IMG/VR virus record: IMGVR_UViG_3300042350_003419
Coordinates: 1 to 64,000 of that record
Source of the DNA: a virus
Length of the DNA stretch: 64,000 nucleotides
Reading direction: 5' to 3' (one strand)
Position numbers and translations under genes: made by a program. The notes below the pieces were generated by a model. The model was not told the origin of the DNA, did no database searches, and was given only the letters and a program-made list of their open reading frames with translations. Every line of letters begins with the position of its first letter. Position 1 is the first letter of the stretch. Shown here in pieces: positions 11,154 through 16,512 of this stretch.

Positions 11154-11382
11154 AAACAGAACACCAAAACAAATAGGAAATGATATTATCCTTTGTGATG
11201 ATGGAACACTATGGAGATGGAACACTAATTTAGGGTTTTCCTCCTATATTTCTGGATGGGAAAAATTACCTCCAATTCCAACTGATGAGGACTATGAAGT
11301 TCTTCAACAAGAAAGAATGGAAGCAGATAGAAAGTGGATAGAAAAACAAACTGAAAGAGGAGTTGCAAAAGTTTATGACTGA
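11146..11382 (+). CDS. Hypothetical protein (78 aa)
   Basis: Contains a Trp-rich core (DDGTLWRWNTNLG, ISGWEKLPPIP) and an acidic C-terminal helix. The G-T-L-W-R pattern resembles single beta-propeller or WD-like blades, but one unit is too little to assign. It overlaps the uvsX start by eight bases and is probably co-translated with it. Confidence 0.55.
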   Translation: MIENRTPKQIGNDIILCDDGTLWRWNTNLGFSSYISGWEKLPPIPTDEDYEVLQQERMEADRKWIEKQTERGVAKVYD

Positions 11383-12322
11383 TTCTAAATCAAGTTTTTT
11401 ACAACAAATTATAAAAGAAATTGGTGGAGAATACACACAACTTGCTTCAGAGATTAATGAAACTGAAACTTTTGTGGATACGGGTTCGTACATTTTTAAT
11501 GCTCTTGTATCCGGCAGTATATTTGGTGGTGTATCTGGGAATAAGATTACTGCAATCGCAGGTGAGAGTTCTACGGGAAAGACTTTCTTCTCTCTTGCCG
11601 TCGTTAAAAATTTCCTTGATAATAATCCTACTGGATATTGTCTGTATTTTGATACTGAAGCAGCAATCACAAAATCCCTTCTGGAAAGTAGGGGAGTTGA
11701 CACAACTCGTTTGGTGGTTGTCAATGTCGTAACCGTAGAAGAGTTTCGTGGAAAGGCACTTAAGGCAGTTGACCTTTATATGAAGAAACCAGAAGGTGAA
11801 CGTAATCCTTGTATGTTCGTGCTAGATTCTCTAGGAATGCTCTCCACCAGCAAAGAGATTAATGATGCTTTGAATGATAAAGAAGTTCGGGATATGACTA
11901 AATCTCAACTAATTAAGGGTGCATTCCGTATGCTGACTCTTAAATTGGGTCAGGCAAAAATTCCTATGTTAGTTACTAATCATACTTATGATGTTATTGG
12001 TGCATATGTTCCTACTAAAGAAATGGGAGGTGGTTGCTTAGTTGCCGGAACTAAGATACAAACAGTAAAAGGTTCTGTTCCTATTGAATCTATTAAAGTT
12101 GGAGACAAAGTAAGAACTATGTTTGGATACTCTTATGTTGCTGATACTTTTTGTTTTAATGATAAAGAAGTGTTTGAGATGGAATTGGAGGATGGTGAAA
12201 TTGTTAAATGTAGTGCAGATCATAAATTTTTAGTGGATACTGAAAACGGTTATGAATGGAAAAAGGTAATTGATCTTTTGCCTGGAGATGCAATCAAATG
12301 CATTCCAACAATTTCAATATGA
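11375..12322 (+). CDS. uvsX: UvsX recombinase N-terminal part fused to N-intein
   Basis: 315 aa: 220 residues of UvsX, then a 95-aa N-intein. UvsX is the RecA-like strand-exchange protein; Walker A GESSTGKT is at residues 63-70. The host protein is interrupted after MGGG, at the DNA-binding loop region, by Cys1 (codon 12035). The intein has block A (CLVAGTKIQT) and block B with CSADHKFL, and ends at a stop codon. The C-intein and the rest of UvsX are encoded at 13001. ATG 11375 is chosen over TTG 11363 because GAGGAG lies a workable 12 bases upstream. Confidence 0.9.
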   Translation: MTDSKSSFLQQIIKEIGGEYTQLASEINETETFVDTGSYIFNALVSGSIFGGVSGNKITAIAGESSTGKTFFSLAVVKNFLDNNPTGYCLYFDTEAAITKSLLESRGVDTTRLVVVNVVTVEEFRGKALKAVDLYMKKPEGERNPCMFVLDSLGMLSTSKEINDALNDKEVRDMTKSQLIKGAFRMLTLKLGQAKIPMLVTNHTYDVIGAYVPTKEMGGGCLVAGTKIQTVKGSVPIESIKVGDKVRTMFGYSYVADTFCFNDKEVFEMELEDGEIVKCSADHKFLVDTENGYEWKKVIDLLPGDAIKCIPTISI

Positions 12323-12326
12323 AAAT

Positions 12327-12365
12327 AGGTTCTGGTCTAAATAGTAATACTTAAGACCAGAACCT
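12327..12365 (+). promoter_or_regulatory. Perfect 12-bp inverted repeat with late promoter in the loop
   Basis: 12327-12338 pairs perfectly with 12354-12365. CTAAATA (12337-12343) begins at the stem edge, so late RNA would start near 12349 and contain only the 3' arm. Read-through from uvsX would fold the hairpin directly against ATG 12367. Confidence 0.75.
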
Positions 12366-12366
12366 A

Positions 12367-13035
12367 ATGTTTATAATAAACAAATATACAAGTTGCTACT
12401 TTCGTATTATAGAAAGAGCAAAGGAAAGAGAAATCAATGGCATTACAGAAAGGCACCACATCATTCCCAAATCATTTGGAGGTAAAAATACAAAAGATAA
12501 TTTAGTAAATTTAACTCCAAGAGAACATTTCATCTGTCATCATTTATTATTAAAGATGGTTGAGGGTGAGTATAAGAAAAAAATGTGTTATGCTTTTTAT
12601 CGTATGTGTTCTATTAATGGTAATGGAGTTAGGTGTAAGAATCTAAATTCTTATGATAGAATAAGGAGAAGTTATTCTCATTTAACTTCAGGTGAGAATA
12701 ATCCTTTCTATGGAAGAGGGCATTATGGACAAAATAATCCAATGTTTAATCCTGTTGTTCGTGAAAAACATAGACAAACTGTTTCTTCTCCAGAACATAG
12801 AAAAATGATGAGTGAAAGGATGAGTGGAGAGTCTAATCCATTCTTCAACAAAACGCACTCAGAACAAACAAAAAAAATTCTTTCGGAACTGGCATCTGAA
12901 AGAAAAGGAGAGAAGTCTCCTCGTTATGGAAAAAAACACAGGCAGGTTGTCTGTGAGCACTGTCAGAAACAAATAACATACCCAATGTATAAGAGGTGGC
13001 ATGGAACGAATTGTAAAGTCTATCAAAAAAGTTGA
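12367..13035 (+). CDS. HNH homing endonuclease inserted in the uvsX intein
   Basis: 222 aa. Core [13 protein letters not shown] then [16 protein letters not shown] (residues about 22-60), NUMOD3-like repeats ([17 protein letters not shown]), and a C-terminal zinc-type C..C...RWHGTNCK. It sits between the two halves of the split intein and overlaps the C-intein gene by 35 bases. It probably spreads the fractured allele by cutting uncut uvsX. It belongs to the same HHxxPK family as the enzymes at 10163 and 14638. Confidence 0.9.
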
Positions 13036-13471
13036 AACAGAAGAAGTATATGACATTACTGTGGAGGGGGAACATCATTACATACTTCATGGAGGTATTG
13101 TCTCCCACAACTCTGGTCTTAAGTATGCTGCTTCTACAATCATCTATCTCAGCAAAAAGAAAGAAAAAGAAGGGACAGAAGTCATCGGAAATATTATTAA
13201 GGCAAAGACTCATAAATCACGTTTAAGTAAGGAAAATCAAGAAGTTGAAGTTCGTCTTTATTATGACGAGCGTGGTCTTGATCGTTACTATGGTCTTCTT
13301 GAGCTTGGGGAATTGGGCGAAATGTGGAAGAATGTAGCGGGGCGATATGAAATTGATGGTAAGAAAATTTATGCCAAGGAAATTCTCAAGAACCCAGAGA
13401 AATACTTCACTGAAGAGGTAATGGAAAAACTTGATGTGATTGCTAAGGGTGAATTTTCCTATGGCGTATGA
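13001..13471 (+). CDS. uvsX: C-intein fused to UvsX C-terminal part
   Basis: 156 aa: a 37-residue C-intein with block F ([17 protein letters not shown]) and block G ending SHN, then the Ser+1 extein [13 protein letters not shown] and 118 further UvsX residues. Trans-splicing with the product at 11375 would give about 339 aa, the usual length for cyanophage UvsX. AAGAGG at 12991-12996 is a good ribosome site. It overlaps the endonuclease gene at its start and the next gene by four bases. Confidence 0.9.
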
Positions 13472-14021: not shown

Positions 14022-14654
14022 ATGGAACGACTTGAACTTACAATTCTTAGAAACTTAATATTCAATGAAGATTATGCCAGAAAGGTCATTCCATTTATTC
14101 AACCAGAATACTATGAACAAAGAACAGAAAAAATAGTCTTTGAGGAAATTGTTGAGTTTATTGTTAAGTACGGGTCTTCAATTACCATAGAAGCACTTAA
14201 TATTGAGATTGATAATCGTAGAGATTTAACCGAATCTGAAAATAAGGAAATCTCAGAATTACTTTCCAAACTTAATGATGCTCCAGTTGATAAACAGTGG
14301 ATTCTTGATACTACCGAAAAGTGGTGTCGTGACAGAGCAATTTATCTGGCACTTATGGAATCCATTCATATTGCTGATGGAAAGGATGAAAAGAAGAATC
14401 GTGATGCCATTCCAAGTATTCTTTCGGATGCCCTAGCAGTATCTTTTGATAATAATATTGGTCACGATTATCTTCAAAATTATGAGGAACGTTATGAATT
14501 TTATCACCGTAAAGAAGATAAAATCGAATTTGATTTGGAATATTTCAACAAAATCACTAAAGGTGGTTTACCTAACAAGACTCTCAATATTGCTCTCGCT
14601 GGTTGCGTTCATCCAGAAACTAGAGTTAAAATTAGATTTAGGAAGATTTCTTGA
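14022..14654 (+). CDS. 41: gp41 replicative helicase N-terminal part with ultra-short N-intein
   Basis: 210 aa: 194 residues of the DnaB-like gp41 helicase, ending LNIALAG, then a 16-residue N-intein, CVHPETRVKIRFRKIS, and a stop. The break lies within the Walker A loop (AG|TGVGKS after splicing), so neither half can bind ATP alone. Block B is absent here and found instead in the C-part at 15340. The last 17 bases overlap the endonuclease on the opposite strand, so that insertion sets the intein end. Confidence 0.92.
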   Translation: MERLELTILRNLIFNEDYARKVIPFIQPEYYEQRTEKIVFEEIVEFIVKYGSSITIEALNIEIDNRRDLTESENKEISELLSKLNDAPVDKQWILDTTEKWCRDRAIYLALMESIHIADGKDEKKNRDAIPSILSDALAVSFDNNIGHDYLQNYEERYEFYHRKEDKIEFDLEYFNKITKGGLPNKTLNIALAGCVHPETRVKIRFRKIS

Positions 14655-15306
14655 TTTTGGAATTTGGTGCTGGTTCTCCAGTTCCAAACTTCCAACCTTC
14701 ATTTAGTTTTATATCAACTTCTTCTGGGGATACTCTTTTCCATCCCTTTGTTCCCGGTAAATGCATTACCTTTTTGCCTTTATGTGCTTTTCCCCCTAAT
14801 GATGCTCGTGTTTTTCTTCCTTCATTAGATGCCCAATAATTGAATTCTGTGGATGCTCTTTGTTTTCCTCCAATTGATGCTCTTTCCTTTCTGCCTTCTT
14901 CTGTGCTCCAATAATAGAAATTTTTAGTATTATTGATTAGATATTCTTGTTTTTGTATTTCTATTCCTTTTAGTCTCCAATCTTTTCTTTCTTCTACTGG
15001 GATTGAGAAGAACCCAATTTGATTATCTCTACAAAATTCTCCTATTATTTTTCTGTGTTGGGGTGTTATATTTGCCCCCAACATTTTCATAGACCTTAAA
15101 TCATTTGGATTTTTATAAATTTTCCAAAGCAAATAATGTGCTATGATATGTTCTCTTACACTTAAATAAGTGAGATTTTCTTCACTATCATCTCCCCCCA
15201 TATGTTTTGGAGTAATATGGTGTTCGTGTAACCCAGAATATTTTTTATAATTGTCTTTTCTTGACCTATTGCTTTCGCATAGATTATAATAGATTTGACT
15301 AAACAT
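14638..15306 (-). CDS. Antisense HNH homing endonuclease splitting gp41
   Basis: 222 aa. Core LHEHHITPKHMGGDD then LSVREHIIAHYLLWKIY (residues about 27-62), followed by repeats with G-G-K-x-R-A-S that resemble NUMOD modules. It is the only homing gene on the - strand, with a ribosome site AGGGGA and a late promoter (15328-15335, - strand) upstream. It lies inside the intein of gp41, between the 16-residue N-part and the 125-residue C-part. Confidence 0.88.
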   Translation of the reverse strand: MFSQIYYNLCESNRSRKDNYKKYSGLHEHHITPKHMGGDDSEENLTYLSVREHIIAHYLLWKIYKNPNDLRSMKMLGANITPQHRKIIGEFCRDNQIGFFSIPVEERKDWRLKGIEIQKQEYLINNTKNFYYWSTEEGRKERASIGGKQRASTEFNYWASNEGRKTRASLGGKAHKGKKVMHLPGTKGWKRVSPEEVDIKLNEGWKFGTGEPAPNSKIKKSS

Positions 15307-15327
15307 TTCCCCTGTCCCTGCTACTAC

Positions 15328-15335
15328 TATTTATA
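15328..15335 (-). promoter_or_regulatory. Late promoter for the antisense endonuclease
   Basis: TATAAATA on the - strand (TATTTATA on +), 22 bases upstream of the start codon at 15306, the usual late-promoter distance here. It lies in the 33-base gap between the divergent genes. Confidence 0.65.
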
Positions 15336-15339
15336 CAAA

Positions 15340-16512
15340 ATGTGGATTGAAAAAGAAACATCAATTGCTGAAATCAAAACATTACTTGATAATGGATATG
15401 AAGTGGAGGTCGATTCTCCCGATGGATATGTTCCTGTTAATTTTTTTATTAATAAAGGAATGTACGAAGAATATAAGTTATATTTGTTAGATAATACTAA
15501 AGTAAAATGTAACGAAAGTCATTTATTTGAAACTACTGACGGATGGATTTCTGCTAAAGAAATAGAGCAATCTAATTCATATTATGAATTTATTACTAGT
15601 GATGGTATTAGAATTGGTAAGATTATTAAAACTAATAATCAAATACCTATTGTGGATATTAATGTAAATCATCCAAATCATAGGTATTATACTAATGGGG
15701 TTTCCTCCCATAATACTGGCGTTGGAAAATCTCTGTTCATGTGCCACGTTGCTAGTGCCGCGTTGCTACAGGGTAGGAACGTGCTCTACATCACTCTTGA
15801 AATGGCGGAAGAAAGAATTGCAGAAAGAATTGATGCAAACCTTCTCAATGTTCCGATTCAGCAATTGGTTGATTTGCCACGTTCGGCATTTGAGAAGAAA
15901 GTAACCGGTATTGCGAAGAAGACTCAAGGTACTTTAGTAATTAAAGAGTATCCTACTGCTTCGGCACACTCGGGGCATTTTAAGGCACTTCTAAATGAAC
16001 TTGCTCTTAAGAAATCATTCCGACCTGATATTATCTTTATTGACTATCTGAATATTTGTTCTTCGTCACGATTTAAGAGTGGTAGTAATATTAATTCTTA
16101 TACTTTGGTTAAGTCTATTGCCGAAGAACTTCGTGGTTTGGCAGTTGAGTTTAATGTGCCAATTGTGAGTGCCACACAAACGACAAGAAGCGGTTTTGGT
16201 TCTTCTGATGTTGAATTGACCGATACTTCAGAATCCTTTGGTCTTCCTGCTACTGCCGACCTTATGTTTGCTTTGATTAGCACGGAGGAACTTGAAGGTC
16301 TGGGGCAGATTATGGTCAAGCAACTTAAAAATAGATATAATGATCCAACAATCTTTAAGCGTTTTGTTGTTGGTATTGACCGTGCTAAAATGCGTCTTTA
16401 TGATTGTGAACAGTCTGCCCAAAAAGACATACTTGACAGTGGGCAGGAAGAGGAGTATAATTATGAAGAAAATAAACCAAAAAAATCATTTGAGGGATTT
16501 AAGTTTTCATGA
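15340..16512 (+). CDS. 41: Long C-intein fused to gp41 helicase C-terminal part
   Basis: 390 aa. Residues 1-125 are intein: block B-like CNESHLFETTDGW (about 57-69), block F VDINVNHPNHRYYTNG, and block G ending SSHN. The extein begins at Thr+1 (codon 15715) with TGVGKSLF, completing Walker A, and continues with helicase motifs (ITLEMAEERIAERID; DIIFIDYLNI as Walker B). Spliced gp41 would be about 459 aa (T4 475). ATG 15340 is the first start after the endonuclease. Four-base overlap with mazG. Confidence 0.93.
   Translation: MWIEKETSIAEIKTLLDNGYEVEVDSPDGYVPVNFFINKGMYEEYKLYLLDNTKVKCNESHLFETTDGWISAKEIEQSNSYYEFITSDGIRIGKIIKTNNQIPIVDINVNHPNHRYYTNGVSSHNTGVGKSLFMCHVASAALLQGRNVLYITLEMAEERIAERIDANLLNVPIQQLVDLPRSAFEKKVTGIAKKTQGTLVIKEYPTASAHSGHFKALLNELALKKSFRPDIIFIDYLNICSSSRFKSGSNINSYTLVKSIAEELRGLAVEFNVPIVSATQTTRSGFGSSDVELTDTSESFGLPATADLMFALISTEELEGLGQIMVKQLKNRYNDPTIFKRFVVGIDRAKMRLYDCEQSAQKDILDSGQEEEYNYEENKPKKSFEGFKFS

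What the first reader, a model, noticed from the sequence alone, without database searches (positions are those of the whole stretch)
14022..16512. gp41 helicase split by an atypical intein with a 16-residue N-part
The helicase N-part ends LNIALAG then 16 intein residues; the C-part opens with 125 intein residues including block B. Canonical split inteins break after about 100 residues. The break is inside Walker A (AG|TGVGKS), so no helicase exists before splicing. Ultra-short N-inteins are known from a few environmental gp41-type sequences (VidaL, as I recall). An antisense homing gene fills the gap and overlaps the last 17 bases of the N-part.
Basis: partly seen in the sequence, partly recalled or inferred. 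Interest (0 to 1): 0.86.

Follow-up and report, generated by a model that had tools for sequence, protein, structure and literature searches.

The report
Phage helicase split by tiny intein
A cyanophage-like virus encodes its replicative helicase as two proteins, each useless alone, that a self-splicing intein with an unusually short (16-residue) front piece should stitch together; related viruses carry the same intein unsplit, split by different homing-endonuclease genes, or as part of a helicase encoded in three pieces.

Summary
The gp41 N-part (14022-14654) ends in a 16-aa IntN; an antisense HNH gene (14638-15306) fills the gap and overlaps it by 17 bases; the C-part starts at ATG 15340 with a 125-aa IntC. 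Catalytic residues are intact and the junction lies inside Walker A. The closest solved intein is VidaL (E 4e-16 for IntN+IntC; TM 0.86 for a contiguous relative), with the same S1 split point. One recollection is wrong: VidaL's native gene is UvsX, not gp41.

In IMG/VR relatives the same gp41 site is empty in most cyanophages, or holds contiguous mini-inteins (9 distinct gp41 forms), or S1-split inteins with an antisense HNH, a sense endonuclease, cargo genes or nothing in the gap. A contiguous and a split form share 98.7% of IntC DNA while flanking exteins are about 65% identical, so the intein moves and its state switches. At least four contigs add a second split intein, giving a three-piece helicase. 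The HNH has its own T4-late-type promoter.

The kind is known (atypically split intein, fractured gene); the contiguous/split series, antisense layout and three-piece helicases I did not find described, but the key 2009 paper was not readable. Splicing and homing are inferred.

The parts
14022..14654 (+). gp41 helicase N-part: N-extein 14022-14603, IntN 14604-14651 (CVHPETRVKIRFRKIS), stop TGA 14652-14654
   Evidence: weak DnaB N-domain match, below cut-off; same N-part in relatives
14638..15306 (-). HNH homing-endonuclease-type gene, antisense; its stop codon lies in the complement of IntN
   Evidence: PHROG 655 homing endonuclease E 4e-16; Pfam HNH E 0.002, below cut-off
15328..15335 (-). 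TATAAATA, T4-late-type promoter for the HNH gene
   Evidence: exact octamer just upstream of the HNH in 44 of 47 distinct antisense-HNH loci
15261..15290 (+). candidate sigma-70-like promoter TTGACC-18-TATAAT for the C-part
   Evidence: 11 of 12 matches; P about 0.01 in shuffles of the 110 nt upstream, similar sites in other antisense-HNH loci; suggestive only
15340..16512 (+). gp41 helicase C-part: IntC 15340-15714 (125 aa), C-extein from 15715 (TGVGKS...), stop codon ends at 16512
   Evidence: VidaL hit E 5e-13 to IntC; DnaB_C E 4e-16, over cut-off
11363..12322 (+). UvsX N-part with a canonical (about 95-aa) IntN from about 12035; second split intein of the same virus, for comparison
12367..13035 (+). 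sense HNH homing endonuclease between the UvsX halves
   Evidence: PHROG 655 E 2e-45; NUMOD3 and HNH
13001..13471 (+). UvsX C-part opening with a 37-aa IntC (...[13 protein letters not shown])

Best explanation
This is a naturally split class 1 intein of the VidaL type, broken at the S1 position (the loop after the first long strand), in the Walker A motif of the gp41 replicative helicase of a T4-like cyanophage. The two halves are made from separate ORFs, associate, and IntN+IntC excise by Cys1 / terminal Asn / Thr+1 chemistry, restoring the P-loop (inferred from conserved residues and homology to VidaL). The split is tied to homing-endonuclease genes inserted at S1 of a small contiguous intein: here an antisense HNH gene with its own late promoter. 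The HNH most likely drives spread of the cassette into alleles that lack it (inferred). Split and contiguous states have switched several times, and the split survives loss of the endonuclease (shown by sequence).
For: VidaL is the best solved relative of IntN+IntC (E 3.9e-16) and the best fold match of a contiguous relative (pLDDT 92.9, TM 0.86, 1.8 A). The split point falls in the residue 14-18 loop of that model. Exact empty sites in relatives. Cys1, NxxH, penultimate His, terminal Asn and Thr+1 are intact in the window and conserved in relatives. IntC is under purifying selection: dN 0.11 / dS 0.52 against L003. Contiguous forms at the same site. The contiguous/split label needs 9 changes on the tree, at least 5 forced by starred branches. 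Contiguous L105 vs split L137: IntN 100%, IntC 98.7% nt identity, exteins about 65%. Split without endonuclease: L101 (TAATG stop/start overlap), L227, L228, L187. HNH and IntC distances correlate, r 0.85 over 48 loci. TATAAATA ahead of the HNH in 44 of 47 loci.
Against: No splicing or cleavage assay. The HNH cut site is unknown: it may target the intein-less gp41, the contiguous intein, or neither. The tree rests on 142 columns and many forks are open, so the number and direction of switches are uncertain. The HNH/IntC correlation is not corrected for shared ancestry.
Confidence: 0.86

Rival explanations
1. The gp41 gene is broken: the split and the antisense insertion inactivate it and the virus relies on another helicase.
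For: No splicing data; the record is a fragment, so a second helicase elsewhere cannot be excluded.
Against: Both extein halves are under strong purifying selection (dN about 0.03, dS 0.6-0.7 against L003); catalytic residues conserved; the arrangement recurs in dozens of contigs.
Confidence: 0.04
2. The interruption is removed at RNA level (intron) or is an assembly or frameshift error.
For: Phage replication genes can host introns (own knowledge).
Against: No intron family in Rfam across 9-20 kb; the interrupting ORF is antisense; the coding sequence on both sides encodes intein residues; same layout in independent assemblies.
Confidence: 0.01
3. The halves assemble non-covalently and the intein pieces act only as a docking module, without splicing.
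For: Split inteins bind tightly (own knowledge); no spliced product has been seen here.
Against: Nucleophiles and the terminal His-Asn are conserved although only splicing needs them; the break is inside the P-loop, where an unspliced tail should block ATP binding (inference).
Confidence: 0.04
4. Concerning origin only: the split form is ancestral (shared with VidaL in UvsX) and all contiguous gp41 inteins are later fusions.
For: VidaL-type UvsX inteins and gp41 inteins share the S1 split. L105 looks like a recent fusion: its linker KIS-W matches the IntN tail of HNH-bearing split relatives and it lies inside a starred clade with split forms.
Against: Most contiguous forms lie on long branches with unrelated linkers, and the UvsX group has a contiguous member too (L170), so contiguous-first with several splits fits equally well.
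Confidence: 0.35

Closest known systems
VidaL atypically split intein (PDB 6vgv, 6vgw; Burton et al. 2020 PNAS, as cited in PMC13014065)
   Same: S1 split point, 16-aa IntN, about 125-aa IntC, Cys1, Walker A insertion, HINT fold
   Different: VidaL sits in UvsX with +1 Ser and a sense-strand PHROG 22677-type gene in the gap; here gp41, +1 Thr, antisense HNH
PolB16 OarG split intein (PMC10189870)
   Same: 15-aa IntN, atypical split near the N-end
   Different: Ser1/Ser+1, DNA polymerase host, 168-aa IntC
gp41-1 split intein (PDB 6qaz)
   Same: Also in phage gp41
   Different: Canonical split, different site (TRSGY|SSSD); weak similarity to this IntC (E 7e-5). It occurs as a second intein in some relatives
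Fractured genes of Dassa et al. 2009 (own knowledge; text not held)
   Same: Split intein with a free-standing endonuclease gene between the halves
   Different: As I recall those were canonical splits; here an S1 split with an antisense HNH under a late-type promoter

Membership tests
Class 1 split intein | Cys/Ser1, block B His, block G His-Asn, nucleophile at +1 | tested here: met
   C1, NESH, SHN|T in the window and conserved in relatives
Class 1 split intein | Two separate ORFs, no continuous frame | tested here: met
   recurs in relatives
Class 1 split intein | Protein trans-splicing activity | not testable with these tools
   Needs expression of both parts
VidaL-type (S1) atypically split intein | IntN of about 15-37 aa, here broken right after the second strand | tested here: met
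   16 aa; break aligns with VidaL's and lies in the loop between model strands 7-13 and 19-24; definition from PMC13014065
VidaL-type (S1) atypically split intein | HINT fold closest to VidaL | tested here: met
   Tested on the contiguous relative L105, not on the window's own pair: TM 0.86 to 6vgv, other matches up to 0.73
Fractured gene with homing endonuclease | Endonuclease ORF between the intein halves | tested here: met
   HNH 14638-15306
Fractured gene with homing endonuclease | Endonuclease cuts the allele lacking it (homing) | not testable with these tools
   Lateral movement of the intein is supported by IntC vs extein identity; cutting is not
Group I/II intron | Catalytic RNA core | tested here: not met
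   No Rfam intron match, E up to 1

The most novel reading that the evidence does not exclude
One phage intein lineage switches back and forth between cis and trans splicing: endonuclease genes of several types enter and leave a single loop (S1) of a small intein, the split outlives them, and the gap becomes a landing place for other phage genes. Combined with a second, canonical split intein it gives naturally three-piece helicases that need two independent trans-splicing reactions.
Probability: 0.55. Interest if true: 0.74.

Novelty: new variant of a known kind. Interest (0 to 1): 0.6.

Why it matters
How split inteins arise is usually argued from distant comparisons. Here near-identical contiguous and split alleles of one intein exist, so the step can be tested directly. 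The family also offers many new ultra-short IntN pairs for protein labelling, and natural three-piece proteins as models for tandem trans-splicing, so far known to me only as an engineered scheme (PMC12707363).

Tried and rejected
Intron search: nothing. Looked for an isolate: among 50,697 phage records I saw no gp41 with this intein in the rows listed; hits to IntC are UvsX, terminase and others, all below 60% identity. Co-conversion next to the intein (L106 vs L137, first 120 nt of the C-extein 0.93/0.87, then 0.65) is only suggestive, because the same stretch is conserved in general. Cargo genes: mostly no known function. The papers of Dassa 2009 and Burton 2020 are not held. Cellular genomes were not scanned. 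The sigma-70-like site count in the region is not above shuffles (7 vs 7.3), so only its score and recurrence count in its favour.

Full report
Observation. The window is part of an 81,974-base virus record. IntN is CVHPETRVKIRFRKIS (16 aa), IntC 125 aa. The C-extein is DnaB_C. Its closest isolates are Synechococcus phages at up to 88% identity; the listed ones match the extein only, without this intein.

What the intein is. phmmer of IntN+IntC against the PDB gives VidaL at E 3.9e-16, with the VidaL sequence RLTKKG/MIEEKK aligning over the window's RFRKIS/MWIEKE. The literature places the VidaL break right after strand 2 (S1), with a 16-aa IntN (PMC13014065). A structure model of the contiguous relative L105 (pLDDT 92.9) has strands 7-13 and 19-24 with the seam between them, and VidaL is the best fold match (TM 0.86).

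VidaL's own gene. A scan with the VidaL sequence found L163-L168. L163 is 100% identical over the 125 aa aligned and reads FAGESG|CLPKEAVVQIRLTKKG* ... SHN|SGKSYFCAG, that is UvsX Walker A, with a 380-aa sense ORF between. In L165/L166 that ORF is gone and the split remains, gap 58 nt. So the S1-split lineage sits in the P-loops of two different phage proteins. Pseudomonas phage PA5oct, an isolate, has the same UvsX arrangement, and its C-part carries an ESI-MS/MS note.

Relatives at the gp41 site. Of the 80 best viral contigs for the C-part most are empty: LNIALAGTGVGKS. Further scans gave, after removing identical sequences, 90 inteins: 53 split with antisense HNH, 17 split with another ORF in the gap or an unresolved gap, 7 split with none, 13 contiguous (12 in gp41, representing 9 clearly distinct forms, and 1 in UvsX). 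Two of the 17 (L189, L217) appear to be endonuclease-free, because the ORF counted is the gp41 N-part itself. Classification used patterns written for this purpose, so counts are approximate.

Switching. On the tree the contiguous/split label needs 9 changes, at least 5 forced by starred branches. L105-L110 (six metagenomes) are contiguous yet sit in a starred clade with split forms. L105 and L137 share IntN DNA completely (39 nt compared) and IntC at 98.7%, while the exteins are about 65% identical. The seams are AGGAAGATTTCTTG|GTGGATTGAAAAAG in L105 and AGGAAGATTTCTTGATTG...HNH...AAAATGTGGATTGAAAAAG in L137. The KIS tail fits the 3' end of the HNH gene, so I favour HNH loss with re-fusion there; this is inference. 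L101 shows a split with no gene in the gap: stop and start overlap as TAATG.

The endonuclease gene. The window's HNH belongs to PHROG 655, as does the sense HNH between the UvsX halves. Different HNH types occupy the same gap in almost identical inteins (window and L085). Sense-strand endonucleases of another type occur in L047, L161, L182 and L210. HNH and IntC distances correlate (r 0.85 over 48; 0.69 in 36), which fits long association. Upstream of the HNH, TATAAATA occurs in 44 of 47 distinct loci; the window has only 13 such octamers, 2 on the minus strand, one of them here. A sigma-70-like site on the sense strand 50 nt before the C-part scores 11 of 12. I read this as a small divergent control region: C-part early, HNH late. 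The late-promoter reading rests on general knowledge of T4-like phages.

Cargo. In many split loci an extra gene lies between the N-part and the HNH: members matching PHROG 3708, HExxH protease-like proteins (PHROG 87) and others.

Three-piece helicases. L116, L131, L187 and L208 carry the S1 split and, further on, a second split intein at TRSG(Y/F)|C; in L116 it is gp41-1-like (E 2e-74 to 6qaz) with a further ORF in the second gap (MKVKIYLITNTAVNPHMYYVGLTK..., GIY-YIG-like by eye). All three gp41 parts are on the contig. I found no report of a natural three-piece protein of this kind in the searches made; absence there is weak evidence.

Verdict. A real, probably active, VidaL-type split intein: known in kind, new in host site and layout as far as I could check, with relatives that make the origin of splitting testable. 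Splicing, homing and promoter use are not shown here.

Noticed in passing
L116, L131, L187, L208 (also partial L101, L125, L152, L193, L206): gp41 encoded in three pieces: S1-split intein at Walker A plus a canonical gp41-1-type split intein at TRSG(Y/F)|, often with an ORF in the second gap.
   Followed up: partly
window 11363-13471: UvsX of the same virus is split by a canonical split intein with a sense HNH between the halves, so two replication/recombination proteins of this virus depend on trans-splicing.
   Followed up: partly
L169 (PA5oct, NC_071039.1): An isolated Pseudomonas phage has a VidaL-type S1-split UvsX; the C-part record carries an ESI-MS/MS note, so splicing could be checked in an isolate.
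   Followed up: partly
L004, L090, L112, L117-L124, L127, L129: Extra phage genes sit between the gp41 N-part and the HNH; the break seems to serve as a landing site for cargo genes.
   Followed up: partly
L167 and L168: UvsX genes that carry both a VidaL-type S1-split intein and a second split intein further on: another probable three-piece protein.
   Followed up: no
L088: HNH gene that begins like one HNH type and ends like another, suggesting recombination between endonuclease genes.
   Followed up: no
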